A stretch of DNA of 35,236 nucleotides from Deltaproteobacteria bacterium (GTDB lineage: Bacteria; Myxococcota_A; Polyangia; Nannocystales; Nannocystaceae), in contig CANLQR010000016.1 in assembly GCA_947492135.1 (NCBI GenBank), positions 1 to 35,236 of the forward strand. The letters run 5' to 3'. Under the pieces are notes generated by a model, which ran no database searches, had not been told where the DNA came from, and saw nothing but the letters and a program-made list of their open reading frames with translations. This document shows, one piece after another, positions 427 through 35,236 of this stretch. Position 1 is the stretch's first letter; every line of letters starts with the position of its first letter. A program made the position numbers and the translations under genes.

Positions 427-1569
<1,143 letters not shown>

Positions 1570-1591
1570 GAACGCCCGAAGGAGACACACC

Positions 1592-2119
1592 ATGACCCAG
1601 ATTCATCCTCTGTCGCTCGCGCTGCTGCTCGCGCTGCCGACGTTCGGTTTCGTCGGTTGCAAAAAGGTCGACACCGATCACCCTGACGTCGCCTCCGGCC
1701 ATCGGAAGAACAAGTACCACTCAGACATCGTCACGGGGACGTACCGAGACGACCACGACGATCAGGGTAAGGGCATCATGCCCAACACATTGCGTTCGAT
1801 CGAGGACACGATCAACAACGTCTACGAGAAAGACTTCGAGCGCTGCCTCGAGGACGAGATGTCGATCGCGGATACGCGCTTCATGCGGAGCGCGTTCAGT
1901 GTCGAGTTCAAGATCGACACAAGCGGCAAGTCCAGCAACGCAACCGTGATCAACATCTGGCTCAAGACTCAGAACGCCAAGGGTTCCAATATCGCCGAGG
2001 TCCCTGCGGACAACCTCAAAGCCTGCATCGCCGCGGCGATCTCGGAGTGGGTGTTCGACCCGCCGCCTGAGGTCGACCACGTGCACACCTACAAGGGCCA
2101 AGTCGGCGAAGCGTTCTAG
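1592..2119 (+). CDS. Small lipoprotein resembling the AgmX/PglI C-terminal domain
   Basis: The 175-residue protein begins with a lipoprotein signal: hydrophobic LALLLALPTFGFVGC with the acceptor cysteine at the end of the hydrophobic stretch. The ATG at 1592 follows a good ribosome site (GAAGGAG, about 7 nt upstream). The body has FERCLEDEM, an alternating strand segment (FSVEFKIDTSGKSSNATV), then CIAAAISEWVFDPPP. That order of 'C...V.F.I...G.......C....W.F' resembles the AgmX/PglI or TonB-like C-terminal domain common in myxobacterial envelope and motility proteins. The match is by eye only. It lies between two acyl-CoA dehydrogenase genes on the same strand, 22 bp after one and 4 bp before the next, so it is probably co-transcribed. 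No link to acyl-CoA metabolism is visible in the protein. Confidence 0.75.
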   Translation: MTQIHPLSLALLLALPTFGFVGCKKVDTDHPDVASGHRKNKYHSDIVTGTYRDDHDDQGKGIMPNTLRSIEDTINNVYEKDFERCLEDEMSIADTRFMRSAFSVEFKIDTSGKSSNATVINIWLKTQNAKGSNIAEVPADNLKACIAAAISEWVFDPPPEVDHVHTYKGQVGEAF

Positions 2120-2123
2120 AACG

Positions 2124-3299
2124 ATGTACGATCTCGTTCCCGAGCCTGGTGAACTCGCCGTCCAAACCCTGGCCCAGCGCATCGCTGGCGAGGTCCTGCG
2201 TCCGGCTGCTGTCGACCTCGACCGCCGCGGGGGCTTCCCGACGGAAAGTCTGCTCGCGTTGTCGCGTTCCGGGTTGATGGGCATCAACGTTCCCCGCGAC
2301 CTCGGCGGACTTGCTGCCGGGCCGGTCGCCTACAGCCTGGCCGTCACCGCGCTGGCCCACGCCTGTGCATCGACCACCGTGGCGCTGTGCGTGAACAATA
2401 TGGTCGCCGAGGTCGTGACGCATTTCGGTTCGCCCGACCAGCGCGCGGCGCATGTCCCGAAACTGTGCGACGGCGGGCACGTGGTCGGTGCGTTCGCCCT
2501 GTCGGAGGCCAGTGCGGGGAGTGATCCCGCTGGCATGCGCACACGAGCCCGACGCACCGAGCGAGGGTGGGTGATCGACGGTAGCAAGTTGTGGATCACC
2601 AGCGGCAGCGACGCGGGGTTGTTCGTGGTCTGGGCCAAGACCAGCGACGATCCGGGCACGCGCGGCATCTCGTGCTTCCTGGTGCCTGGCGACACCCCAG
2701 GCCTGTCGCGAGGAAAGCCGGAGCACAAGCTCGGGCTGTGCGGGAGCACGACGTGCGCCATCGAGTTTTCTGGCTGTGAGGTCGGACCGCAAGCGCTGCT
2801 CGACGATGTTGGGCGAGGGTTTCGCGTGGCCATGATGGCGCTCGACGGCGGACGGATCGGAATCGCTTCGCAGGCCATTGGCATCGGTCGTGCGGCGACT
2901 CAAGCGGCAGCCTCGTGGGCGTGCGAGCGGTACGGCGCAAACGGGGTCCCCCAAGGCGTCGCGTTCGCTTTGGCCGACAGCGCCACTGAACTCGATGCTG
3001 CGGCGCTGCTCACGTTGCGCGCCGCTTGGCTCAAGCGTGAGGGCCGTCCGTTCTCGCATCAGGCGAGCATGGCGAAGCTGCTCGCCAGCGAGAAAGCCTT
3101 CGCGGCCTGCAACCGCGCGCTGGGGATGATGGGGGCCCAAGGGCAGGACTGTGATCACCCGGTCGAACGGTTCTTCCGCGACGTCCGCGTTACCATGATC
3201 TACGAGGGCACCAGCGAGGTGCAGCGTGTGGTCGTGTCACGGGACATCGCGAGACGCTACGACGCCGATCCCCGAAGCCCGTCGGAGCTCAGGCTTTGA
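2124..3299 (+). CDS. Acyl-CoA dehydrogenase paralogue with catalytic glutamate but altered cross-dimer FAD motifs
   Basis: The protein has 391 residues. The N-terminal and middle domains are intact: ALSEASAGSD (about residues 125-134) and LWITSG are both present. The catalytic motif MIYEGTSEVQ is kept (E361). In contrast, the flavin-contacting R-x-x-F-G motif is replaced by CERYGANG near residue 267, with a short deletion compared with the neighbour at 427-1569. The Q-x-HGG segment is replaced by MMGAQGQD near residue 335. In known homotetrameric family members these two motifs reach across the dimer to hold the partner's FAD. The next gene overlaps its stop codon and keeps exactly these motifs, so a mixed enzyme is likely. 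The start ATG lies only 4 bp after the upstream lipoprotein stop. Substrate unknown. Confidence 0.9.
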   Translation: MYDLVPEPGELAVQTLAQRIAGEVLRPAAVDLDRRGGFPTESLLALSRSGLMGINVPRDLGGLAAGPVAYSLAVTALAHACASTTVALCVNNMVAEVVTHFGSPDQRAAHVPKLCDGGHVVGAFALSEASAGSDPAGMRTRARRTERGWVIDGSKLWITSGSDAGLFVVWAKTSDDPGTRGISCFLVPGDTPGLSRGKPEHKLGLCGSTTCAIEFSGCEVGPQALLDDVGRGFRVAMMALDGGRIGIASQAIGIGRAATQAAASWACERYGANGVPQGVAFALADSATELDAAALLTLRAAWLKREGRPFSHQASMAKLLASEKAFAACNRALGMMGAQGQDCDHPVERFFRDVRVTMIYEGTSEVQRVVVSRDIARRYDADPRSPSELRL

Positions 3300-4348
3300 A
3301 GTGGCCGGCGCACGTCGAGGCGTTGCAGGGCGCGGTTGTGGCTTTGGGAGCCCGCGAGTTGGGCCCAAACGCAGCGCGCTGGGATAGCAGCGCCGGCTTC
3401 GAGCCGACGTTCGCCGCGAAAGTGGCGGACTGGGGGTTGTTTGGTGTCAGCGTGCCCGAGGTTCAAGGTGGCGCCGGGGCGGGCTTGCTTGGCGCAGCCG
3501 TGGTCATCGAAGAGATCGCGGCGCACAGCGGCTCGCTCGCGATGCGGCTCGCGCTGCACGAGGGCGTGGCGGTCGGCTTCGCACTTGGCCTCGCAGACAC
3601 GTCCTTGCTCGCGCGACTCATCGGCAACGGCGGCTTCGCGGGCTGGGTTGGTCTGGGCCGCGGCGTGACCGCCGAGCAGTCCAGCGATCGACTGCGACTG
3701 CAGGGCTCGGTTTGCATGGCGCCCGGTGACGGCGACCTCGTGGTCGCCGGTCACGGCACCGGCGGGCCGCGAGTCGGTTTCGTCGCGGCGGATCAGCTCA
3801 GCTCGGGTCGTGCTCGCGCGGCGTGTGGCCTTCGTGCCGTGGGTTGGACGGACGTCGTGATCGATGCCGATGTCGAGCACTCAGGCAACGCGGCCGTGGC
3901 CGCACGACTGGGCGCGCGCCTGTCGGTACTCATCGGCGCGGTCGCGTGCGGACTTGCCCGCGCTGCAATCAGTCAGGCGACCGCGTACGCCCAGGTTCGC
4001 GAGCAGTTCGGGCAGAGCATCGCGCAGTTCCAGGCGATCCAATGGAAACTCGCCAATGGCGCGACGGAGCGCGACGCGGCGTGGCTGCTCGTCACCGATG
4101 CAGCGGGTCGGCTCGATGCCCAGCGGCCCGCTGCCAATGAGGCGGCCGCCCGCGCTCAGCTCGCGGCGGTGCGTATGTCGGTCTCGGCGTGCTCCGAGGC
4201 CCTCCAAGTCCACGGCGGCTATGGCTACACCCGCGAGTTTCCGATCGAGCGGCTGCTCCGCGACGCGCGGGCGTGCACTGCGATCGATCGTGGCGATGAT
4301 GACCTTCGCGCGGCCCTCGCTGCTGCCATCACCGCGAGATTCGAGTAG
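3296..4348 (+). CDS. Degenerate acyl-CoA dehydrogenase paralogue, probable partner subunit of the preceding gene
   Basis: The protein has 350 residues, starting at a TTG that overlaps the previous stop codon (TTGA), a sign of translational coupling. It has the family fold but lacks the middle-domain LSE-x-x-AGSD and W-I-T-N motifs. The catalytic YEGTSE motif is also gone: the aligned segment reads AIDRGDDD, with D331 where the glutamate should be. It keeps the motifs missing upstream: VREQFGQSIAQFQ (R235) and QVHGGYGYTREFPIERLLRDARA (from residue 304). It should therefore be inactive alone but able to complete the FAD site of the preceding protein. Mycobacterial steroid-degradation enzymes of the FadE26-FadE27 (ChsE4-ChsE5) type form such alpha2beta2 complexes. 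Pairing here is inference. Confidence 0.88.
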   Translation: MKWPAHVEALQGAVVALGARELGPNAARWDSSAGFEPTFAAKVADWGLFGVSVPEVQGGAGAGLLGAAVVIEEIAAHSGSLAMRLALHEGVAVGFALGLADTSLLARLIGNGGFAGWVGLGRGVTAEQSSDRLRLQGSVCMAPGDGDLVVAGHGTGGPRVGFVAADQLSSGRARAACGLRAVGWTDVVIDADVEHSGNAAVAARLGARLSVLIGAVACGLARAAISQATAYAQVREQFGQSIAQFQAIQWKLANGATERDAAWLLVTDAAGRLDAQRPAANEAAARAQLAAVRMSVSACSEALQVHGGYGYTREFPIERLLRDARACTAIDRGDDDLRAALAAAITARFE

Positions 4349-5103: not shown

Positions 5104-5841
5104 CTATTCAAGGCCCAGATCGGCGACGTCGTCCTCGTCGAGACCAAAAAAGTGGCCAAGCTCGTGCAGAACCGTGACTTCGACCTGTTCGGCCAGTGTT
5201 CCGTCGTCCGTCGCGATCGCCAGCAGGTTTGCGTAGAACAGGACGATCCGTGTCGGTCGGGTGTCGGCGTGGCCAGCTTTGCGCGCGAAGTCGGTCGCGC
5301 CTTCGAACAGGCCCAAGGCCCGAGGATCGAAGCACTCCCGCACCAGATCGACGCTGGGGCGGGCCTCGAGCACGACGGGGACCTCCTCGATGCGCTCGGC
5401 GAGGTGGGCGGGCAGGCTCTCTAGAGCCCGCCGCGCGTGATCCTCGATGAAGGCCAGGTCGGCCGGCGTGCCCACGCCCGCACGACGGTCGGCACGCGTG
5501 TCGAGGGCGAGCACCAGGAGGTTGTGTTCGATCATGCCGGCCATGTCGCCGCGGTCCTCGAGCAGGCTGGCGAGCAGATGCTGGGCATCGGCGTGTTCCG
5601 GGTCGTCGGCCACGGCCGCACGCAAGCTGGCCTCCGCCGAGCGCCAGTCGTCGACGAGCAGTGCGAGTTCTGCCTGAAGCAGCAGGACCTCTGCCGCCTG
5701 CGGCGCGAGGGCGACGGCCTCGCCAATCGTCGTGCGCGCGCGCGCCGGGTCATCGCTGGCGAGCAGATCGAGCGCCTCCTCGACCAGGTGGGCGAGGACG
5801 TCGGCCTGGGCCGCGGAGAGTCGTGTACGGGCGGGCGCCAT
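5104..5841 (-). CDS. TPR-like protein fused to a C-terminal zincin (PF06262-type) metallopeptidase domain
   Basis: The protein has 245 residues and starts at ATG 5841. Residues 10-110 are helical and TPR-like: ARTTIGEAVALAPQAAEVLL, LALLVDDWRSAEASLRAAV and DPEHADAQHLLASLLEDRGD repeat the roughly 34-residue pattern. The C-terminal part has FDPRALGLFEG, then RIVLFYANLLAIA, then VTVLHELGHFFGLDEDD. HELGH at residues 226-230 is a zinc-binding HExxH motif, and the 'lfy.n......v..tv.HE.gH.fGl.e.dl' context matches the small bacterial zincin family PF06262. No signal peptide is seen, so it is probably cytoplasmic. That family is usually about 120-130 residues without TPRs; the fusion suggests a protein-binding role. 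Substrate unknown. Confidence 0.8.
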   Translation of the reverse strand: MAPARTRLSAAQADVLAHLVEEALDLLASDDPARARTTIGEAVALAPQAAEVLLLQAELALLVDDWRSAEASLRAAVADDPEHADAQHLLASLLEDRGDMAGMIEHNLLVLALDTRADRRAGVGTPADLAFIEDHARRALESLPAHLAERIEEVPVVLEARPSVDLVRECFDPRALGLFEGATDFARKAGHADTRPTRIVLFYANLLAIATDDGTLAEQVEVTVLHELGHFFGLDEDDVADLGLE

Positions 5842-8730: not shown

Positions 8731-8761
8731 ACTCTAGCGCTTTGGGGGCGCTGCTTGTCAA
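8731..8761 (-). promoter_or_regulatory. Candidate sigma-70 promoter for rpsT
   Basis: On the minus strand a perfect TTGACA (8761-8756) is followed after 19 bp by TAGAGT (8736-8731), which starts 24 bp before the GTG at 8707. The spacer is longer than the optimal 17 bp, so this is a moderate call. It lies in the divergent gap shared with the cyclophilin gene. Confidence 0.4.
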
Positions 8762-8793
8762 GCCGGGCCGGCGGGTGCAGCCTATTGCCAGCA

Positions 8794-9666
8794 GTGAGCA
8801 TACTGGCAGCAGTTGGCATTCCGGGGACTCCATGGCGGCGCGGACGCCAGGCGGTCGCGATAGGTCTCATCGGCGCGGCCGGGATCGGCTGCGTTTTCAC
8901 GGCGCCACGGCTCCTCCCTGAGGAACTCGCGGCGCAAGAGGCGGAGCAGGCCCAGCGGACCGCGTTGGCGCAGGCCAGCAAGGCCCCAGGTGCCCCAGGG
9001 GGCAACGGCGAGCCCAGTGGTCCGAGGTTCGTCGCAGGCGACGAGCCGGAGCTTGGGATGACCGAAGAGGAGATCCGCGAGTACGCGACCGCCCAGGGCG
9101 ATCCCGAAGGCGGTGATTTCATCCTCGACGAGGCCCTCGAAGGGCTGCCCGCTGGAGCGCACCTGTGGGCCCGACTCGAGATGCAAGACGGCGCACTCGA
9201 ATGCGAGCTGTTTCCTAGCCTCGCGCCACGGACGGTGGCCAACTTCGTCGGGCTCGCGCGTGGCAAGCGAGCCTCTCGCGACGCCGAAGGTGTCTGGTCC
9301 GCACGGCCGTACTTCGACGGCACGGTGTTTCACCGGGTGATCGAGGGTTTCATGATCCAAGGTGGGGATCCCACCGGGACTGGTACGGGGAACAGTGGCT
9401 ACGTGATCCCCGACGAGTTCGGGGAGGGCCTGTTCCATGATCATCCCGGCATGCTGAGCATGGCGAACCGCGGGCCGACGACTGGCTCCGCGCAGTTCTT
9501 CATCACCCTCGCCCCGACGCCGCACCTCGACGGTAAGCACGCGATTTTCGGCCGCTGCACCGACGCCTCGGTGACCCTCGCGGAGCGCATCGCGGCGACC
9601 GGCGGAACTGGTGATCGCCCACGGACGCCGCAAACGATCCTTCGCGTCGAGATCACCTACCGCTGA
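8794..9666 (+). CDS. Membrane-anchored or exported cyclophilin-type peptidyl-prolyl cis-trans isomerase
   Basis: The chosen start is GTG 8794 (290 residues); an in-frame TTG at 8755 would overlap the rpsT promoter region. The N-terminus has a basic patch and then a hydrophobic stretch, AVAIGLIGAAGIGCVFTAP, so it is either an anchor or a lipoprotein signal. A low-complexity acidic linker of about 100 residues follows. The cyclophilin domain has FHRVIEGFMIQGGDPTGTGT, MANRGPTTGSAQFFITLAP and HLDGKHAIFGR, which keep the catalytic Arg, the Gln and Phe of Q-F-F-I, and the His pocket. It should isomerise X-Pro bonds in the periplasm. Its last 10 bp overlap the end of the convergent giant repeat gene, which encodes an exported, proline-periodic protein and is a possible client. 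Confidence 0.92.
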   Translation: MSILAAVGIPGTPWRRGRQAVAIGLIGAAGIGCVFTAPRLLPEELAAQEAEQAQRTALAQASKAPGAPGGNGEPSGPRFVAGDEPELGMTEEEIREYATAQGDPEGGDFILDEALEGLPAGAHLWARLEMQDGALECELFPSLAPRTVANFVGLARGKRASRDAEGVWSARPYFDGTVFHRVIEGFMIQGGDPTGTGTGNSGYVIPDEFGEGLFHDHPGMLSMANRGPTTGSAQFFITLAPTPHLDGKHAIFGRCTDASVTLAERIAATGGTGDRPRTPQTILRVEITYR

Positions 9667-12600
9667 GCCGCGGAGCGCTTGAGTCCGCGGGCCGCCGTTT
9701 CAGGCGTGGTGCCACGCCTGGTCCGGTGGGAGGCGCCTGGCTTGGCGCGCTTGGCTCGAGGCTTGCGCACGCGCTCGGGTGGGGCCTGACCCGGACCTCG
9801 ATCGATTCGGCCGCCGAAGATCGACACATAACGTCGCCCGGCCTCGACACCCGCTCCCACCAGGCCCAGCACGGCGCGCCAGTGAAAATCGCCCTGGGTT
9901 GCCCCGCGCCCGCGCGTCCACCAACCCAAACCTGGCCCGATCACCTTCGTATCGACGCGGGGACCGGCGAGGCGCAGGTACGCGCCGGGTACGAGCTGCA
10001 CGGTCTTGCCCTTGCGGCGGATGTCCCACCAGGCGAACGCGCCGAACGTACCGCGGTTGTCCCCGCGTTCGATGTGCCAGACGAGTGGGAACTGGACGAA
10101 GTCGAGATTCTTGCCCTTGCGATGCTGCACGTAGAGCGGACCGAGGGCGGTCCAGGTCTCGTCCTTGCCCCAATTGTCGTCACGCAGAAACAGTGGTGCG
10201 ATCCAGGTGAGTCGCCGCTGCGCGAAGGCGTGGCTGTGGAAGAACAGCGGTGGCAACACGGCGGTCGCAACTTTGTGTTGCTGACGGACCTGCCACACGA
10301 CGAGCCCAGCCTGGAAAAAGCGCCGATCTTCGCGGTGTCGGCCGATGAACAGCGGTGGCAAGACCAAGGTGAGGTTGCGATCCTCGAGTCGATGGGCGCG
10401 ACGAAAATACAGCGGGAAGATCATCAACCGCCGATGGGTGTTGGTCGTGCGCATCGCGACCGGCCCGCCGTACCAGCTGAGCAGTTTGCCGGGTCGGTTG
10501 TTCAGCCCGAACAACGGCGTGTACAGCTTGGAGCCCTGGGCGTCACGGTCGTACACGTACAGTAGAGATCCGTGGGTCAACCGACCCTTGCCGTCCTTGC
10601 CGTACAAGAAGAGCGGCACGCTGCCCCACAGCGTGTAAGTGCACTTGGGGTCGTCCTCGGTCAAGAATCCGCACTTGCGGTGGCGGAACAACAGCGGCGC
10701 GAAGCCGGTGAAGCGCGAATTCTTCTGGACCCGGAAGACGTCGACGAAACCCGGAGGCGCGATCGAAAATCGCGTGAAGTTGTGCAGGCGCTTGCCGCCG
10801 AACACAAACGGGAACACGCCCCAGGTCCGCTTGCCGTTGGCCCGTTGTCGATCGAACCAAAACGGGGCGGCGACGGTGGTGTGCTCGCCGGACTGCTTCT
10901 TCGCGATGTGGACGATCGTCGGTAGCGAGATCAGCCGGCGATCGGTGTCGCTGTCCATCCACCATGCCAGTGGGAGGACTCCGGTGTTCAGCGACTTGCG
11001 ACTGAGACGATGGAAAAAGGGCCCAGCGATCAACGTGTGGGTCTGACGCACTCGGTCGCGGGACCAAAAGAACCCAGTGCCGGCGTCGACGTCGACGCCG
11101 TTTGGCTGCCGCTGTCGAAAGTAGAACGGCACCACTGCGAGATTCTTGCGCGCGCGCTCCCCACGAAGCTCGCGACGCCAGATCAGCGGCGAGAACATGT
11201 CGAGGTCGTCGTTCTTGGACCGATGACGGATCAAGAACGGGACCACGCTGACGTTGCGTAGCAAGCCGTCCGCAGTACGCTCGGTCGTGGTCCAGACGAA
11301 CGGGGCCACGCCAGTGACAGTACGGGTAGGGGTCTGTCGACGGACGAACGGGCCCCACACCAGCGTGCGGGTCGTCGCCGTCTTGTAGATGCCGCCGAGG
11401 AGCGAGACCGTGAGACGGTCGTCGCCCCGCTGTCGCCGATAGTAGAACGGCACAACCGCTGTGTGACGCTCGGCGCCGCCGTCGCGGACTGCATCCCAGA
11501 CCAATCCCAAGGCCCCGAACGTGCGCTGGTCGGGCGCGCTGTGGCGAACGAACAGCGGCGAAAGTGTCAGACGACTGCGCGAGGCCACGTCGGTGACGTC
11601 AGCGAACAGCAACAAGGGCGCGACGCCGTAGCGGTGCTTGCTGCCGGTGCCCCAGAACAACAGCGGCGCAAGTCCACCATCGATGTCCTTGTCGCGGCGG
11701 TGGAGGTAAAACGGCGCGACGACCACTGTGCGACGCTTCGCTTCGCGGTCGTGGGCATGCCACACCAGCGGCGTGATGACCTGCCAGCGCGTGGTCCCAC
11801 GTCGCCCCGCAAAGACCCCGAGCAGCGGAGCTCCACCGCGGACGTTGCCCTTGTGCTTGTCGAAGAAGCCCAGCGGGCCGAGCACCACGGTGCGCCGCGG
11901 ATCAGCGCCGCCGGGGCGGTTCACGTGCCAGAACACGCCCAGCACGCCTTGGGTCGCCGTGCCGTCATCGCGACGGCCGACCCACGTCAGCAGCGGAGGT
12001 ACAAACGCTCCATAGCCTTTGGGCGTGCGCATCCCACCGCCGAGCAGCGTCCAGACCGAGGTGCGATCGGGGGTCTTTCGCGAGAAGCCCAGCGGCAGCA
12101 GCACGCGCACCGTGGTGGCGTTGACGCGGTCACGGAACTGAAACCACAGAGGCGCTGCGAAGATGTTGCGTTGCCGCGGATCGTCATAGATGCCCACCGG
12201 CCCGGCGAGCGTGAACTGACTGCCGCGCAGCGTGTTGCGAGTCCGCCAGACCAGGGGCGTTGCCGCGAAGATCCGGCGGTCGCGATCGCGATGCTCGAAG
12301 CTCAGGGCGAGCGGCACCGCCCAGGCGCTGCGGCCACGCGCTCGGTCGCTGCGCTGGATCCACGGCAACGTCCAGACCTCGCGCCGGTTGCCGAACTCGC
12401 TTTGGTGCCAGAGCGCGAACGGGGTGACCGCGACCCACCGTCGGCCTTTGACCCGGTTCTCCGCGCCCATGTACGCGAAGGCGAAATCGAAGCGCTTCAT
12501 GCCTCGGCGAAAGCGCCAGAACACCGGTCCGGCGACGAACCATCCGCGGTCGTTCTCGGCGTTGGTGTCCTCGCGGAGCTTGTGTCCGTACCAAAAAAGC

Positions 12601-13436
12601 AGGGCCGACACGCCGCGAAATCCGTCGGGCCGCTTCTGCTGGTAGTGGAACGGCGCGACGAGGAGGTTTTTGACGTACTTGGTGCCCCACGCCCACACGA
12701 GGGGGAACTGACCAAAGTTGTATTGCTCGCCAATGCGGCGATAACCCATCAACAGCGGCACCGTGCCCCACACGGTCTTGCGCTCGGAGTAGCTGCCGAA
12801 GAACAGCGCGGGCAGGCTGAGCCAGCGGCGCTTGCCGCCATCGGTACCCCAGCCAAACGTCAGCGTGGCGTCGACATGAAGCAGCTTGGTCGTGTTGCCG
12901 GCGGTCGGCTCGCGATGCACGAACAGTGGCGGGAAGCCGATCGCGCGGGTCCGATGGGTGTCGTACGTGCGATCGATCCACAGCGGCGGTACCGATCGCG
13001 ACCTGAGTAGCTTCGAACGCACGTCAGGCTTGGCCGGGACCACCGCGGCCGGTTCGTCGGTGCGTGGCGCAGCGGGGTCGGCGGCCCCAGCGGGCGGAGG
13101 CGGAGGCGGCGCAAACCGCCATGGACTCGGTAGCGCGGCGAGAGGCGGCGCGGGTGGTGCGAGACTGAACATCGTCGCCCCGGGGTGCCAGGTGACGCTG
13201 CTGGCCAACACCGGTGCGATTCGTGGCTGGACCGCGCGAGTCTTCGGCGGCGCGGCGAGTCGCGAACGCTCGCCCGCGAGCGCGTGCGTGCGCGAACCTG
13301 CGCGCGCCGGTGGTGCCACAAGCCATGCGCACCCGAGGCCGACCACCACGAGCAGGCGCACCAGGAGGGCTCGAAGGAGCGTCCGCTTCAGGGCGCGACG
13401 CGTTGCAGCCGCGCGCTCGTTTGCGGGGGACTCCAC
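9657..13436 (-). CDS. Giant exported protein built of about 50 short beta-strand repeats (function unknown)
   Basis: The predicted 1259-residue protein starts at GTG 13436, a few bases after a good promoter; an upstream extension would run through the divergent yceD gene. A basic start and hydrophobic LLVRLLVVVGLGCAWLVA followed by APPARAG form a signal peptide. Residues 50-148 are Pro/Ala-rich with a PPPPPP run. From about 149 to 1213 a unit of roughly 21 residues recurs about 50 times. Its core is 'hydrophobic-x-P-L/F-hydrophobic-aromatic-x-x-R' followed by a polar, basic turn. Examples are VAPFYLHRRDKD, LSPLFVRHSAPD, VVPFYFRQRQPNG, FAPLLFRHRKC, IAPLFLRDDNWGKD and LGPLYVQHRKGKN. This predicts stacked strands, perhaps a very large outer-membrane barrel or a beta-rod. 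A 46-residue Arg/Lys-rich tail ends it. I recognise no known family. Its 3' end overlaps the cyclophilin gene by 10 bp. Confidence 0.85.
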   Translation of the reverse strand: MESPANERAAATRRALKRTLLRALLVRLLVVVGLGCAWLVAPPARAGSRTHALAGERSRLAAPPKTRAVQPRIAPVLASSVTWHPGATMFSLAPPAPPLAALPSPWRFAPPPPPPAGAADPAAPRTDEPAAVVPAKPDVRSKLLRSRSVPPLWIDRTYDTHRTRAIGFPPLFVHREPTAGNTTKLLHVDATLTFGWGTDGGKRRWLSLPALFFGSYSERKTVWGTVPLLMGYRRIGEQYNFGQFPLVWAWGTKYVKNLLVAPFHYQQKRPDGFRGVSALLFWYGHKLREDTNAENDRGWFVAGPVFWRFRRGMKRFDFAFAYMGAENRVKGRRWVAVTPFALWHQSEFGNRREVWTLPWIQRSDRARGRSAWAVPLALSFEHRDRDRRIFAATPLVWRTRNTLRGSQFTLAGPVGIYDDPRQRNIFAAPLWFQFRDRVNATTVRVLLPLGFSRKTPDRTSVWTLLGGGMRTPKGYGAFVPPLLTWVGRRDDGTATQGVLGVFWHVNRPGGADPRRTVVLGPLGFFDKHKGNVRGGAPLLGVFAGRRGTTRWQVITPLVWHAHDREAKRRTVVVAPFYLHRRDKDIDGGLAPLLFWGTGSKHRYGVAPLLLFADVTDVASRSRLTLSPLFVRHSAPDQRTFGALGLVWDAVRDGGAERHTAVVPFYYRRQRGDDRLTVSLLGGIYKTATTRTLVWGPFVRRQTPTRTVTGVAPFVWTTTERTADGLLRNVSVVPFLIRHRSKNDDLDMFSPLIWRRELRGERARKNLAVVPFYFRQRQPNGVDVDAGTGFFWSRDRVRQTHTLIAGPFFHRLSRKSLNTGVLPLAWWMDSDTDRRLISLPTIVHIAKKQSGEHTTVAAPFWFDRQRANGKRTWGVFPFVFGGKRLHNFTRFSIAPPGFVDVFRVQKNSRFTGFAPLLFRHRKCGFLTEDDPKCTYTLWGSVPLFLYGKDGKGRLTHGSLLYVYDRDAQGSKLYTPLFGLNNRPGKLLSWYGGPVAMRTTNTHRRLMIFPLYFRRAHRLEDRNLTLVLPPLFIGRHREDRRFFQAGLVVWQVRQQHKVATAVLPPLFFHSHAFAQRRLTWIAPLFLRDDNWGKDETWTALGPLYVQHRKGKNLDFVQFPLVWHIERGDNRGTFGAFAWWDIRRKGKTVQLVPGAYLRLAGPRVDTKVIGPGLGWWTRGRGATQGDFHWRAVLGLVGAGVEAGRRYVSIFGGRIDRGPGQAPPERVRKPRAKRAKPGASHRTRRGTTPETAARGLKRSAAQR
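9801..12992 (-). repeat. Protein-level tandem repeat region, about 50 units of roughly 21 residues
   Basis: This is the part of the giant gene that encodes the 'P-L/F-F-x-x-R' units. Individual units differ so much that the DNA is not a tandem repeat at base level; the periodicity is in the protein. Repeated PLV/W forms (FPLVWAWGTK, ATPLVWRTRN, ITPLVWHAHD, FPLVWHIERG) alternate with PFY/PLF forms (VVPFYYRRQR, VAPFYLHRRD, LPPLFFHSH). Alternation suggests paired strands. The divergence implies an old expansion rather than a recent slippage array. Confidence 0.8.
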
Positions 13437-13599: not shown

Positions 13600-14256
13600 G
13601 TGCGACCCGCGGCGGTTCCCGATGCCCTGGTTGTCGACGTCTCCGCGATGCGTCGACGTAGCGAGTCCCATGTGGCGCTCGAGCGCGAGCTTGCGATCGG
13701 CTGGCTCCGTGAGGCGTTGCGCGACACCGACGCCGAGGTCGAGGCACCCGCCCACGTGAAGCTCGACGTGGTCATTCAAGGGGACGGCAGCGCCATCGTG
13801 ACCGGGTCCCTGCGGGGTGGGTTTCAGGTCCCGTGTGCCCGCTGTCTCGACCTCGCCGAGGTGAGTGCGGATGGCGCCATCGCAGCGATGTTTGTCCGCG
13901 AGGGTGGTGCGCATCGTCTCCCCGACGAGACGGACGATCTCGCGGAGGACGACGATGAGGGTGGCGCAGATCTCTGGCCCTTCGACGGGATGAGCCTCGA
14001 TCTCGCGCCGCTCCTGGTCGAGACCGTCAAGCTCGCGTACCCGATGCGCGTGCTGTGCACCCGCGGTGCGGCCTGCAGAGGTCTGTGCAGCCAGTGCGGG
14101 GCGCCACTGAACGAACAGCCCCCAGACACCCCGCGCTGTGCCGTTTGCGGCCGAAACGACCCGCGGGTACCTGAAGTCGACCTCATCCCTTCGGCAGAAC
14201 CACCCCGTACGGACGCCCTGGCGGAGGCTCTGCGCAAGATTCGAGTCCCTGAGTGA
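13600..14256 (+). CDS. yceD: DUF177/YceD family protein, zinc-ribbon form
   Basis: The protein has 218 residues from GTG 13600. It shows the DUF177 pattern: FQVPCARCLDLAEV in the middle, then acidic residues, and the C-terminal CRGLCSQCGAPLNEQ with a further C-x-x-C (CAVCGRND). The paired cysteines suggest a bound metal. Genes of this family almost always precede rpmF, as here, and are linked to 23S rRNA processing or ribosome assembly. The molecular role is not firmly established. An N-terminal part with ALERELAIGWLREALRDTD is less conserved. It is divergent from the giant repeat gene and heads the fatty-acid gene run. Confidence 0.9.
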   Translation: MRPAAVPDALVVDVSAMRRRSESHVALERELAIGWLREALRDTDAEVEAPAHVKLDVVIQGDGSAIVTGSLRGGFQVPCARCLDLAEVSADGAIAAMFVREGGAHRLPDETDDLAEDDDEGGADLWPFDGMSLDLAPLLVETVKLAYPMRVLCTRGAACRGLCSQCGAPLNEQPPDTPRCAVCGRNDPRVPEVDLIPSAEPPRTDALAEALRKIRVPE

Positions 14257-31492: not shown

Positions 31493-33175
31493 TCACTCGA
31501 CCGTGATCACGCTGGTCTCGCCCGCCCGAATGGTGACGGTTCGTTGCAGCAACACCTGACGCGTCGGACAGGCGTCGGTGCACGTGACCACGACGCGGTG
31601 CGTCCCCTCGGACAGCGCGAGCTTGCGCGTCGGTGTGGCGCCGGCCTTGCGACCGTCCACGGTGACCTCGGCCCAATCGACCCCGCCTGCGACGATCTTC
31701 AGGAACCCATCGGCGGCCGGTTTCACAGGCGCGAGGTCGACTCGCGGCGGCAAGGGGCGGGTCGCAGAGAACTCCAGCGTGCGGGTGCTGTAGCCCGCAC
31801 GACGCACGACGATGGTCGCCGGACCGCGCGGGAGCGCGAGCTTCGACGGGTCCTCGACGCGGGTGCCATTGACCGTGACCGTCGCGTCGGTGGGCGTCAC
31901 GACGAGCGCCACGGTCGACGCCGGCGGATCGACTACCGTTGGCTTCGGGGGCACGTTCGGCGTGGGCACCGGTGTTGGCCGCGGGGCGAGCGGCGGGGCG
32001 TCGGCCGAGTCCGCGTTCAACCGCACCTCGGCCAGCGGTCCGGCCGTGGACGCGGTGGGCTCAGGCTCAGTGGGCGGCGGGGGGTCGGGCCGCGTCAGCA
32101 CCCACGCGGTGATGCCCAGCCCGAGCACCACGACGGCAGCGAGCGCGAGTGGTCCGCGCGGACTCGTGGACCTCGCTGCCTGACCCATGGGCCCCGCGCG
32201 CGTCACCATCGTGAGACGCGTGGCAAACGTCTGCGTCTGGGGGCGCCCGTCGGCGCGGAGCCTGGCCGATCCCGCCACCGCGGGCTCGGTGAGGGACTCC
32301 CAGCCGTCCGGGAACAAGGACCGCAGCAGAGCCGCGAGCTGGGGGTCGCCCCAGGTCGCGCTATAGCGCGCAAAGGCGGGTGCAAGCCGGGTGATGAACT
32401 CCCCCGCGTCGGCCGGGCGTTGGGCCGGATCTAGCGCGAGCGCATCAGCGATGGGCTCGCGCAGCTCGGCGGGCAGACTCGCGACATCGGGCGGGCTCCA
32501 CACGCCCTCACGCGGGAACGCGCGCTCGAGCGTCAGCATCTCGAAGAGCACGCAGCCCGCGCTGAAGACGTCAGCGCGGCGATCGACGGTGTCGCCGCGG
32601 ATCTGCTCGGGGGCGGCGTAACCCGTCGATCCACCGCGCACCTCGACCTCGGCATCGGCGGGTGCCGCGATGCCGAAGTCGACGATGCGAACCTGCCCGG
32701 ACCGATCGATCATGATGTTGCGTGGGGTGATATCGCGGTGCACCACCGCCGGACGCCCCGGCTCTGCCGTGTGCGCATAGGCGAGTCCGTTGAGCACGGC
32801 GCGGCCGATGTGCAGCGCCGCGCCGACATCCGGCGCAAGCTCGCGACGGCGACACTCAGCGAGCATCGTCGAGAGGCTGGGCCCGTCGACGTGGCCCATG
32901 ACGATGTAGAAGGTATCTCCGGCGCGCCCGAGTTCGTAGATCGGCACGATGTTGCCGTGCGAGAGCGCGACGGCCGTCTTGGCCTCGGCAGCGAACAGCT
33001 CGACAAAGCGCGGCTTGGCGGCCAGGTGCGGCAAGATGGTCTTGATCACCAGCCGCTTCTCGAAGCCCATCTCGCCGACCAGCCGGGCGAGATAGACCTC
33101 GCCCATCCCACCCCGGGCGAGCAGTCGCGTGAGGCGGTACTTGCCGAACGACAGCGAACTCTCGCTGCTGGTCAT
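31493..33175 (-). CDS. Transmembrane Ser/Thr protein kinase with two periplasmic PEGA domains
   Basis: ATG 33175 is preferred (560 residues); an ATG at 33250 would overlap the divergent gene's start. The Hanks-type kinase domain (about 10-270) is complete: LLARGGMGEVYLA, ATP-binding K45 in LVIKTIL, VVHRDITPRNIMID (D148 and N153), VDFGIAA, and GGSTGYAAPEQI followed by DRRADVFSAGCVLFEML. After a linker, GPLALAAVVVLGLGITAWVL (341-360) crosses the membrane. A Pro-rich stalk leads to two PEGA units, TPTDATVTVNGTRVEDPSKL and WAEVTVDGRKAGATPTRKL. It should sense something outside and phosphorylate targets inside. Such kinases are abundant in myxobacteria. It is divergent from the Kelch-like lipoprotein gene. 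Confidence 0.93.
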   Translation of the reverse strand: MTSSESSLSFGKYRLTRLLARGGMGEVYLARLVGEMGFEKRLVIKTILPHLAAKPRFVELFAAEAKTAVALSHGNIVPIYELGRAGDTFYIVMGHVDGPSLSTMLAECRRRELAPDVGAALHIGRAVLNGLAYAHTAEPGRPAVVHRDITPRNIMIDRSGQVRIVDFGIAAPADAEVEVRGGSTGYAAPEQIRGDTVDRRADVFSAGCVLFEMLTLERAFPREGVWSPPDVASLPAELREPIADALALDPAQRPADAGEFITRLAPAFARYSATWGDPQLAALLRSLFPDGWESLTEPAVAGSARLRADGRPQTQTFATRLTMVTRAGPMGQAARSTSPRGPLALAAVVVLGLGITAWVLTRPDPPPPTEPEPTASTAGPLAEVRLNADSADAPPLAPRPTPVPTPNVPPKPTVVDPPASTVALVVTPTDATVTVNGTRVEDPSKLALPRGPATIVVRRAGYSTRTLEFSATRPLPPRVDLAPVKPAADGFLKIVAGGVDWAEVTVDGRKAGATPTRKLALSEGTHRVVVTCTDACPTRQVLLQRTVTIRAGETSVITVE

Positions 33176-33231
33176 CAGGTCGGTGCGTGAGTCGGCGCTC
33201 GACAGGGCGTCGATGGTAGCATGGCCGTGGG

Positions 33232-35236
33232 ATGAGGCGGACGGTGACACTTCGCGCGCTTGTGGCTGCGGGGACTCTCGCAGTGGCAGGGGCGGCTGCA
33301 GGCTGTGCGGAGGATTCGCGTCCGATGCTGGTTGCCCTGCGCGGCTGCGGCTTCGAGGGCGTCGAACTCAGCGTCTTGGTGCTGGTGCCACGCGGGGATT
33401 TTCCCGCGGCGGAAGCGAGCGCGGTCCAGGTCGACGGCGGTCGCTCGGGGATCGACGAACTCCCCGAGGATGCGACAGCGATCACCATCGAGGGCAGGTT
33501 CGCCGATGCGACGTTTGCAGTCGGTCGGACCGCAAGACTCGAAGAACAAGACGACCGCCTCGTGGTGTACTTTGCCCCTGAAGACGAGTTGTGTGCCGTG
33601 CAATCCGGCGCGGGAGTCGAGTTTCGCGATGTCGGCGCGAGCGCGGTGGGCCCGCTGGGGGACGTGCTCCTCGTCGGGGGCCGGGACCGTCAGGGGCGGC
33701 TCGTCGACGACATCGTTCACGTACGCGACGTCGGGGAGTTCGGCACGCCGCTCGCGGGCTCGATGCCGTCGCCGCTGACTGGCCTGGCGGTGGTGCCGAT
33801 CGGTGAACGTCGCTTCGCGGCCATCGGCGGTGCGACCGCGGATGGGCGCGTGCTCGACGAGATGGTGCCGATCGACCTCGCGGCCAGCGATCCCATCGGC
33901 CCGAGAGTTCGCATGGACGTGCCGGGCATCGACACCAAGCGCAGCTATCACGCTGCGGGCATCCTCCCCGATGGGCGGGTGCTGGTCACGGGTGGCTGTA
34001 CCGCGCTCGATCTGCAGTCCCGCTGTGTTTCGTCGGTCGGCGCTGTGGTCAACACCGCCTTCTTGATCGACGCGCGGGGGCCCGAGCCACAGTTTAGTCG
34101 GGCGCCTTCGATGCTGGTCGGTCGCTACGATCACGAGATCCTCGTCGGCCGTGACGGCGCAGTGTTTGCGGTGGGCGGACGCAACGAGGTTGGGCGCGGG
34201 GTGGTGACCTTCGAACAATGGGCGCCCGATGAGATGGCGTGGACGCCGTACGGCCGCACCGAACTGCTGGGGCTCGCAGGCGAGCGGACGATCCTCGGCG
34301 CTGCGCTGCTCGAGGGCGGGTTGATCGTGGTTGCGATCGACGATGGGTCGATCGCGTGGGTCACCGACGGTGGTGCTGGGCGCTGGGCATCGTGGTGCGA
34401 TGGCGACGCGGCGACGCCCGGATGTTTTCATGACGAGAACGCAGACCCCGTGGCCCCCGAGCGGCGACGCTTGGTCGTGCTACCCGGCGAGCGTATCGTC
34501 GCTGATGCGTGGCTCTTGCCATTTCCCATGCTGGGGGCCACCGCCGCCGATGCGCTCGATCTTTCACTACGCAAGGTCGGGCAGGCCACGCCTCCACCGC
34601 CGCGCCGGACCTCGACGTCGATGACGATGTTCGCGGATGGCACCGTCCTGGTTGCTGGCGGCCGCGATCCCGATACGCTGGTCCCGGCGCAGCCGTTTCT
34701 CTCGCGGCTACGACCGCGGCTCGACGGCGGAGACGAACGCATTCCCGGTGTGGGGACCTTCGAGACCGCGAGCTTCGTGCTGCACGACCCCGACCACACC
34801 GGGTTCGACGGTGATGGTCTGACGCTGACCAGCGAGGGTGACGAGCTCGAGTTTCCGCAGGTGTGGGCCCACACCCGGGCGTTTCGCAGCGCGACGTTCC
34901 GCTTCGACATCGTGATCGGTGTCGAGGGCAGTGCGGATGGCGTGGACCCACCACGTCCGCACGTGGTGCTGTCGCAAGGGGCGATGGCGGGCACGAGCAT
35001 CCGTTTCGACTCCGGGATCACCGGCTATCGTCGAGACGCGGCGGGTCGCGTGGCTTCGTTTTCATGCGCCGCGACGCCGATCGATTTCGCGACACAGTCG
35101 GTGCGCCTGCGGGTCGACGTTCGCCCCGAGTCGATCGTGATCCGCGTCAACTCCGACGTGGTGGCGAACTGTCCGGGGGCCGGCGACGTCGTGTCGGCGA
35201 TCGGCATCGGCGTCTCGGGCACGGGCTCGCTGCTCG
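33232..35236 (+). CDS. Kelch-like beta-propeller lipoprotein with C-terminal jelly-roll-like region (3' end outside window)
   Basis: The frame from ATG 33232 stays open to the window end (668 codons). The N-terminus is a lipoprotein signal: LRALVAAGTLAVAGAAAGC with the lipobox cysteine. From about residue 140 Kelch-like blades recur, each with 'G-x-hydrophobic-hydrophobic-x-G-G'. Examples are DVLLVGGRDRQGRLVDDI, RFAAIGGATADGRVLDEM, GRVLVTGGCTALDLQ, AVFAVGGRNEVGRG and GTVLVAGGRDPDTL. After about residue 500 a strand-rich part with FRSATFRFDIVIGVEG and SVRLRVDVRPESIVIRVN suggests a concanavalin/LamG-like fold. The protein is probably on the outer membrane surface. It is divergent from the PEGA kinase with 56 bp between the starts. 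Ligand unknown. Confidence 0.85.
   Translation, partial: MRRTVTLRALVAAGTLAVAGAAAGCAEDSRPMLVALRGCGFEGVELSVLVLVPRGDFPAAEASAVQVDGGRSGIDELPEDATAITIEGRFADATFAVGRTARLEEQDDRLVVYFAPEDELCAVQSGAGVEFRDVGASAVGPLGDVLLVGGRDRQGRLVDDIVHVRDVGEFGTPLAGSMPSPLTGLAVVPIGERRFAAIGGATADGRVLDEMVPIDLAASDPIGPRVRMDVPGIDTKRSYHAAGILPDGRVLVTGGCTALDLQSRCVSSVGAVVNTAFLIDARGPEPQFSRAPSMLVGRYDHEILVGRDGAVFAVGGRNEVGRGVVTFEQWAPDEMAWTPYGRTELLGLAGERTILGAALLEGGLIVVAIDDGSIAWVTDGGAGRWASWCDGDAATPGCFHDENADPVAPERRRLVVLPGERIVADAWLLPFPMLGATAADALDLSLRKVGQATPPPPRRTSTSMTMFADGTVLVAGGRDPDTLVPAQPFLSRLRPRLDGGDERIPGVGTFETASFVLHDPDHTGFDGDGLTLTSEGDELEFPQVWAHTRAFRSATFRFDIVIGVEGSADGVDPPRPHVVLSQGAMAGTSIRFDSGITGYRRDAAGRVASFSCAATPIDFATQSVRLRVDVRPESIVIRVNSDVVANCPGAGDVVSAIGIGVSGTGSLL

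What the first reader, a model, noticed from the sequence alone, without database searches (positions are those of the whole stretch)
9657..13436. Giant exported protein made of about 50 divergent 21-residue strand repeats
Seen: a signal peptide, a Pro-rich linker and about 1065 residues in which a 'P-L/F-hydrophobic-aromatic-x-x-R' strand plus a basic turn recurs about 50 times, then an Arg/Lys-rich tail. The units are too divergent for DNA-level repeats. I know of no named family with this unit. Inference: a very large closed barrel or long beta-rod at the cell surface. One alternating aromatic/arginine strand per 21 residues would suit an outer-membrane wall or a polysaccharide-facing surface.
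Basis: partly seen in the sequence, partly recalled or inferred. Interest (0 to 1): 0.82.

Follow-up and report, generated by a model that had tools for sequence, protein, structure and literature searches.

The report
Giant exported single-layer beta-ribbon protein
The gene encodes a very long exported protein, predicted to fold into a ribbon of over a hundred tiny strands lying side by side, kept as a single full-length copy by every sampled relative in its bacterial order; it belongs to an undescribed family whose number of repeats is fixed within each lineage, as in a ruler, but its function is unknown.

Summary
The gene (minus strand, 9657-13436, 1259 aa) has a signal-peptide-like start, a Pro-rich linker, about 58 divergent units of ~18 residues (not 21), a conserved C-terminal motif and a basic tail. 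It is under purifying selection and found in 29/29 genomes of its order, nearly always single-copy and co-linear. Related proteins occur in 193/290 genomes of the class and few outside it. Unit number is quantised: about 24-25, 29, 53-55, 59-62 or ~75-80. Pfam has no match. NCBIfam's LA_1737_Cterm model matches many members, always below its cut-off. AlphaFold2 of a 24-unit relative is confident (pLDDT 90.5). Each unit is two 6-residue strands joined by a Pro turn. The closest solved folds are single-layer beta-meanders (CPAP TCP/G-box, MORN, OspA); the weaker model of the window protein shows the same unit anatomy. An outer-membrane barrel wall is unlikely: strands are too short, and hydrophobic residues gather at the Pro-turn edge instead of alternating. 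Best reading: an exported ribbon with one greasy edge, acting as a fixed-length envelope scaffold or spacer. The fold is well supported for the family; the function is inferred and unproven.

The parts
9657..13436 (-). Giant beta-ribbon gene, 1259 aa, GTG start at 13436, stop at 9657-9659
   Evidence: dN/dS 0.23 against the orthologue; present in 29/29 genomes of the order, nearly always as one copy
13299..13436 (-). Signal-peptide-like N terminus, residues 1-46 (likely cleavage after APPARA)
   Evidence: sequence inspection; Sec-type signal-like N termini also read by eye in several distant members; no signal-peptide predictor was available
13002..13298 (-). Pro/Ala-rich linker, residues 47-145
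   Evidence: low conservation between orthologues, 35-65% in this part against 73-93% in the repeats
9798..13001 (-). About 58 tandem ~18-residue units, residues 146-1213: strand - (A/V)P(L/F) turn - strand - polar loop
   Evidence: model 1 strands and the confident model of a relative
10779..11501 (-). Best-modelled block of repeats (residues 646-886), where the two-strands-per-unit pattern is read directly
   Evidence: blocks mostly at pLDDT 60-77 in model 1; strand/turn map
9804..9890 (-). C-terminal motif region DFHWRAVLGLVGAGVEAGRRYVSIFGGRI, counterpart of the family motif W-x-VL-x-GL-x-GY-x-R-x-G...LRLLWIPI
9660..9797 (-). Arg/Lys-rich C-terminal tail, residues 1214-1259
   Evidence: poorly conserved
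13600..14256 (+). yceD-like gene, divergently transcribed, start of the yceD-plsX-fabD-fabG-acpP-fabF cluster; context, not part of the system
   Evidence: Pfam; a yceD-like gene beside the giant gene in most loci of the order with enough flank
8755..9666 (+). Cyclophilin-type peptidyl-prolyl isomerase, convergent, 3' end overlaps the giant gene by 10 bp; context
   Evidence: Pfam; kept beside the gene in part of the order

Best explanation
Shown by sequence: a conserved, single-copy gene for a 1259-aa protein with a signal-peptide-like start and about 58 units of ~18 residues; the units are positionally conserved between species and unit number is fixed within lineages. Predicted with good support: each unit is a small hairpin of two ~6-residue strands joined by an (A/V)-P-(L/F) turn, and successive hairpins lie side by side as one continuous single-layer antiparallel beta-meander. 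In the window protein that would be roughly 115 strands. At the spacing measured in MORN1 crystals (9 hairpins in about 8 nm, PMC7725318) the ribbon would be some 50-57 nm long if straight, against about 21-23 nm for the 24-unit relatives. One edge (the Pro turns) is greasy in the whole family; the other edge is polar, and Arg-rich in this order. Inferred: it works outside the cytoplasm as a fixed-length envelope scaffold or spacer. The greasy edge would dock along a membrane, a partner or a second copy, and the polar edge would face water or polyanions. Where it sits in the envelope and what it binds is not shown.
For: Coding and export. Repeat and period. Universal, nearly always single-copy, co-linear in the order. 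Class-wide family: profiles built from its two ends (A3, A4) each match 193 of 290 genomes, with the same families listed, and align with each other at hhalign E 1e-30, probability 99.9. Fold: relative L101 at mean pLDDT 90.5 with 52 strands of about 6 residues. Nearest solved structures: CPAP TCP/G-box (4bxp, Z 13.2, rmsd 9.8, 160 of 170 residues), MORN1 (6t4r, Z 10.3, rmsd 5.6), junctophilin-2 MORN domain (Z 10.0, rmsd 6.0), OspA variants. The lower-confidence model of the window protein matches the same folds (CPAP, Z 9.9, rmsd 4.8, 121 residues) and shows the same strand-Pro turn-strand unit. Greasy edge: hydrophobic fraction 0.80/0.78/0.85 at positions -2/+1/+2 around the Pro, falling to 0.1-0.2 at -7/+7, without clear alternation (same trend). 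Frozen unit number: 24-25, 29, 53-55, 59-62 or ~75-80 by lineage; in the most divergent orthologue tested, 37 of 51 units still match their positional partner best, while units within the protein share only 17% identity.
Against: The window protein's own model is weak (mean pLDDT 54, pTM 0.36); its fold rests on the relative. Best Z values of 10-13 with rmsd of 5-10 A for an all-beta repeat may reflect a common arrangement only (note). No localisation signal beyond the signal peptide and no informative operon partner: neighbours are housekeeping genes (yceD here, hisS elsewhere) or a small exported protein of unknown function. The scaffold function is inference. Quantised lengths could simply be shared ancestry without selection on length.
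Confidence: 0.5

Rival explanations
1. Lipid-conducting bridge: the continuous greasy edge, or a groove if the ribbon curls as MORN sheets do, is a rail for lipids between membranes, functionally like TamB/AsmA, LptA or VPS13-type bridges.
For: An unbroken hydrophobic stripe along the whole repeat; some fold similarity to lipid-handling sheets (ApoB-100 9coo Z 8.3, rmsd 5.2; LptD Z about 6-8); divergent to the plsX-fab cluster in its order; MORN sheets have a longitudinal groove (PMC7725318).
Against: No Pfam match to TamB; TamB is present in 279 of 290 genomes of the class, the window's genome included, so the protein does not replace it. No N-terminal membrane anchor of the TamB kind was seen, only a signal-like peptide. 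The fab neighbourhood is not kept outside the order. Whether a groove exists was not measured.
Confidence: 0.17
2. Cell-surface or secreted adhesive/matrix fibre: the ribbon is displayed outside the cell, sets a reach of tens of nanometres and binds polysaccharide or other cells.
For: Signal-like N terminus and disordered linker; a Cys-rich motif (C..D.QCP...C..G.C) in most long relatives outside the order, fitting an oxidising compartment, and TIGR04201 Myxo_Cys_RPT weakly at that place; aromatic and Arg-rich composition.
Against: Adhesins usually vary fast in unit number and often exist in several copies; this one is single-copy, length-frozen and positionally conserved. No sorting, autotransporter or secretion domain was found.
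Confidence: 0.18
3. Giant outer-membrane beta-barrel wall.
For: All-beta, exported, aromatic-rich; weak fold similarity to VDAC/TOM40-type sheets (Z 6-8).
Against: Strands are 5-6 residues, shorter than membrane-spanning strands; no in/out alternation; the hydrophobic residues sit at one edge; most of the best fold matches are open sheets.
Confidence: 0.06

Closest known systems
CPAP/SAS-4 TCP (G-box) domain
   Same: Free-standing single-layer antiparallel beta-meander of short strands joined by tight turns; best fold match (4bxp Z 13.2, rmsd 9.8, 160 of 170 residues). About 20 strands, described as without a hydrophobic core (PMC3776556).
   Different: No Pfam hit; bacterial and exported; here 50-160 strands, a Pro-centred hydrophobic turn every 18 residues and a greasy edge. 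No sequence homology shown; function unrelated as far as known.
MORN repeats (MORN1, junctophilin)
   Same: One hairpin of two 6-residue strands per unit, elongated twisted sheet; Z about 10.
   Different: The MORN unit is 23 residues with GxG and YEGEW motifs; here about 18 residues with a Pro turn, and no Pfam MORN match.
NCBIfam NF047486, LA_1737_Cterm (LA_1737 family; Leptospira by the locus-tag prefix)
   Same: Profile matches in 32 of 34 short members (best E 2.6e-11), in five of eight relatives scanned separately at 7.5e-14 to 8.5e-10, and in 8 of 24 order members; likely a distant relative sharing the repeat.
   Different: Every match is below the curated cut-off (52.0 against 60 bits at best; window protein 20.2) and covers part of the model only. 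No paper on LA_1737 was found in the held library.
Borrelia OspA single-layer sheet
   Same: Single-layer beta-sheet in an exported bacterial protein (Z about 8-9, mostly engineered variants).
   Different: OspA is a lipoprotein whose single-layer sheet is short (general knowledge); no repeat-level sequence similarity seen.

Membership tests
LA_1737_Cterm (NCBIfam NF047486) | Score at or above the curated cut-off of 60 bits | tested here: not met
   Window 20.2 bits; best family member 52.0 bits
LA_1737_Cterm (NCBIfam NF047486) | Statistically significant profile similarity | tested here: met
   32/34 short members match, best E 2.6e-11; L061 at 7.5e-14; window only 4e-4 to 9e-4
Free-standing beta-meander of the CPAP TCP / MORN / OspA kind | Single layer of consecutive short antiparallel strands | tested here: met
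   Prediction only: relative L101 at pLDDT 90.5 and its fold matches; window protein same pattern at lower confidence
CPAP TCP10 domain family | Pfam profile match | tested here: not met
   No such hit in any Pfam scan of the family
MORN repeat | 23-residue unit with GxG and YEGEW motifs / Pfam MORN match | tested here: not met
   Unit of about 18 residues with a Pro turn; no Pfam MORN match
Outer-membrane beta-barrel | Membrane-spanning strands with alternating inward/outward residues | tested here: not met
   Prediction: 5-6-residue strands; hydrophobicity graded from one edge, not alternating
Outer-membrane beta-barrel | Closed sheet | tested here: inconclusive
   pTM 0.54 and no coordinates to measure closure
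TamB / AsmA-like bridges | Pfam TamB profile match | tested here: not met
   No hit; a separate TamB gene lies in the same genome
RHS/YD shell, teneurin | YD-repeat profile match | tested here: not met
   No Pfam match; Foldseek and VIA hits to teneurins have TM about 0.1 or, for most rows, rmsd above 9 A

The most novel reading that the evidence does not exclude
A class-wide molecular ruler or bridge in the bacterial envelope: a single-layer beta-ribbon 20-75 nm long with a continuous greasy rail on one edge, whose length is set by a genetically frozen number of hairpins and either fixes a membrane distance or carries lipid along the rail.
Probability: 0.2. Interest if true: 0.85.

Novelty: new variant of a known kind. 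Interest (0 to 1): 0.64.

Why it matters
Free-standing single-layer beta-sheets are rare: the CPAP domain, with about 20 strands, was described as unique among natural proteins in 2013 (PMC3776556). Here is an apparently undescribed bacterial family with 50 to 160 such strands in one exported chain, found in all sampled members of a whole order and most of a class, with unit number frozen by lineage. If the ribbon is real it asks how such a sheet stays soluble, what its greasy edge binds and why its length is fixed. The 24-unit and 59-unit relatives make the length question directly testable.

Tried and rejected
Pfam: only a sub-threshold phosphoribosyl-transferase stretch in the window protein (22 bits against 25; 2 of 24 order members), judged chance. 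PDB by sequence: nothing convincing with one protein, nothing at all with profiles. Plasmids and IMG/VR: no relatives. Foldseek E-values look good but TM-scores are about 0.1, so teneurin, WD40 and LRP hits were not used; viral structure library likewise. TamB replacement rejected: TamB is in 279 of 290 genomes. A functional reading from neighbours was rejected: the fab cluster is beside the gene only in its order, hisS or other genes elsewhere. Charge as the conserved feature was rejected: net +60 to +97 in the order, near zero in most short members, acidic in another class. The sub-cut-off Leptospira-type match could not be followed to a Leptospira genome with the tools at hand. Several early genome-search runs failed for machine reasons and were repeated.

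Full report
OBSERVATION. The window is a whole 35,236-base contig of a 7.97-Mb draft genome. The orthologue in L002/L003 (a record titled Deltaproteobacteria bacterium Ga0077550) is 75-78% identical, with dN/dS 0.23 and the third codon position carrying most changes, so the gene is real. Autocorrelation of hydrophobicity peaks at 17-19, 36 and 54 residues. A de novo 14-column motif finds 56 units with median spacing 18 and scores 686, against 351 +/- 11 for shuffles retrained in the same way. Counting skipped units there are about 58.

DISTRIBUTION. Every one of 29 genomes of the order holds the gene, nearly always as one full-length copy, in a few as pieces of a split frame or draft contig. 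They align end to end at 41-82% identity. In the class, 193 of 290 genomes match. A second profile made from short, distant members (A4) also matches exactly 193 of 290, with the same families listed as present and absent, and the two profiles align at hhalign probability 99.9. In a phylum sample only 6 of 78 matching genomes lie outside the class.

UNIT NUMBER. With one pooled motif, members have 24-25 units (families f11, f22, f25 and others), 29 (f8), 53-55 (f16, f21), 59-62 (the window's order and families f3, f4, f10, f13, f15) or about 75-80 (f67, outside the class), with median spacing 17-19 apart from one irregular outlier, L131. Within the window protein units share only 17% identity, no more between neighbours than between distant units, while positional partners in orthologues share 46-85% and in the most divergent case tested 37 of 51 units still match their own partner best. 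The array is therefore old and has not gained or lost units for a long time. Shared ancestry alone could produce this; selection on length is a possibility, not a demonstration.

STRUCTURE. AlphaFold2 of residues 141-1218 with 24 orthologues is weak (mean pLDDT 54, pTM 0.36) but all-beta, with strands of about 6 residues every 9 residues where it is better defined. A 24-unit relative, L101, with 34 sequences gives mean pLDDT 90.5, pTM 0.54 and 52 strands of about 6 residues. In both, the unit reads strand (-7 to -2), turn (A/V)-P-(L/F), strand (+2 to +7), polar loop. The best structural matches of L101 are the CPAP TCP/G-box (4bxp Z 13.2, rmsd 9.8, 160 of 170 residues of that domain), MORN1 and junctophilin (Z about 10, rmsd 5.6-6.3) and OspA variants. 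The window model's best matches are the same folds (CPAP Z 9.9, rmsd 4.8, 121 residues). These are free-standing or single-layer antiparallel beta-meanders. The alignment to 4bxp is nearly one to one in residue number, so strand spacing agrees. The tool's own caution applies: such Z values can reflect a shared arrangement only.

GREASY EDGE. In A4 the fraction of large hydrophobic residues is 0.80 at -2, 0.78 at +1 and 0.85 at +2 around the Pro, and falls to 0.20 at -7 and 0.14 at +7. A3 shows the same trend. There is no clear alternation along the strand as in membrane barrels. The opposite edge is polar; it is Arg-rich in the window's order (net +60 to +97), near neutral in most short members, and acidic in f67. 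So the greasy edge, not the charge, is what the family keeps. A C-terminal motif (GL-x-GY-x-R-x-G ... LRLLWIPI) is shared by most members.

CONTEXT. In the order the gene is divergent to a yceD-like gene in most loci with enough flank; in the window this starts a plsX-fabD-fabG-acpP-fabF cluster. A cyclophilin gene is convergent in some. In several other families of the class the gene follows hisS; in others an exported protein of about 190 aa lies directly upstream. Nothing here points to one pathway. A separate TamB gene is present in the same genome and in 279 of 290 genomes of the class, so this is not a TamB substitute.

COMPARISON. There is no Pfam family and no PDB relative by sequence profile. 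NCBIfam NF047486 (LA_1737_Cterm) matches 32 of 34 short members and several long ones significantly but always below its cut-off. A distant kinship with that family is likely, membership by its own criterion is not met, and no paper on it was found in the held library. The fold resembles CPAP TCP and MORN sheets; the sequence signatures do not.

MECHANISM. Most likely an exported single-layer ribbon that serves as a fixed-length scaffold or spacer in the envelope, the greasy edge docking along a membrane, a partner or a second copy. Shown: coding, repeat, conservation, distribution, unit number. Predicted: fold. Inferred: location beyond export, docking, spacer role. From MORN1 (9 hairpins in about 8 nm, PMC7725318) 24 units would span about 21-23 nm and 58 about 50-57 nm if straight; that 21-23 nm is close to a typical periplasm is suggestive only (general knowledge). 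Rivals: surface fibre and lipid rail at near equal weight, outer-membrane barrel far behind.

VERDICT. A real, apparently undescribed family with an unusual predicted fold of a known kind. Interest 0.64; new variant of a known kind.

Noticed in passing
L061:5703-6266, L063:6208-6786, L080:1826-2392 (similar open frames in L064 and L066): In several long-form families an exported-looking protein of about 190 aa lies directly upstream of, and overlapping, the ribbon frame; no confident Pfam match (weak DUF4878 in one). Possible operon partner.
   Followed up: partly
L069, L070, L072, L075: In three short-form families (f8, f11, f22) the ribbon gene directly follows hisS (histidyl-tRNA synthetase), a synteny kept across families.
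   Followed up: partly
L061, L062, L063, L064, L065, L066, L067, L079, L080, L117, L121, L122 (N-terminal parts): Long-form members outside the window's order carry a four-Cys motif (C..D.QCP...C..G.C) before the repeats; the order and the short forms lack it.
   Followed up: partly
L025, L027 (G023, G017): The gene is split across reading frames in two genomes although all pieces are present; sequencing errors or recent frameshifts.
   Followed up: no
L131:1945-4143 (minus): A more irregular, likely lipoprotein member from another class (family f54, ...LAIGCAAPQ, spacing about 20), perhaps a link to a wider superfamily.
   Followed up: no
window 427-4348: Three acyl-CoA dehydrogenase genes (427-1569, 2124-3299, 3296-4348) with an unassigned 226-aa frame (1439-2119) between the first two.
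   Followed up: no
window 5104-5841: A TPR plus zincin-like metallopeptidase protein on the minus strand, antiparallel to and overlapping the start of an RNA methyltransferase frame.
   Followed up: no
window 31493-33250: Ser/Thr protein kinase with a C-terminal PEGA domain.
   Followed up: no
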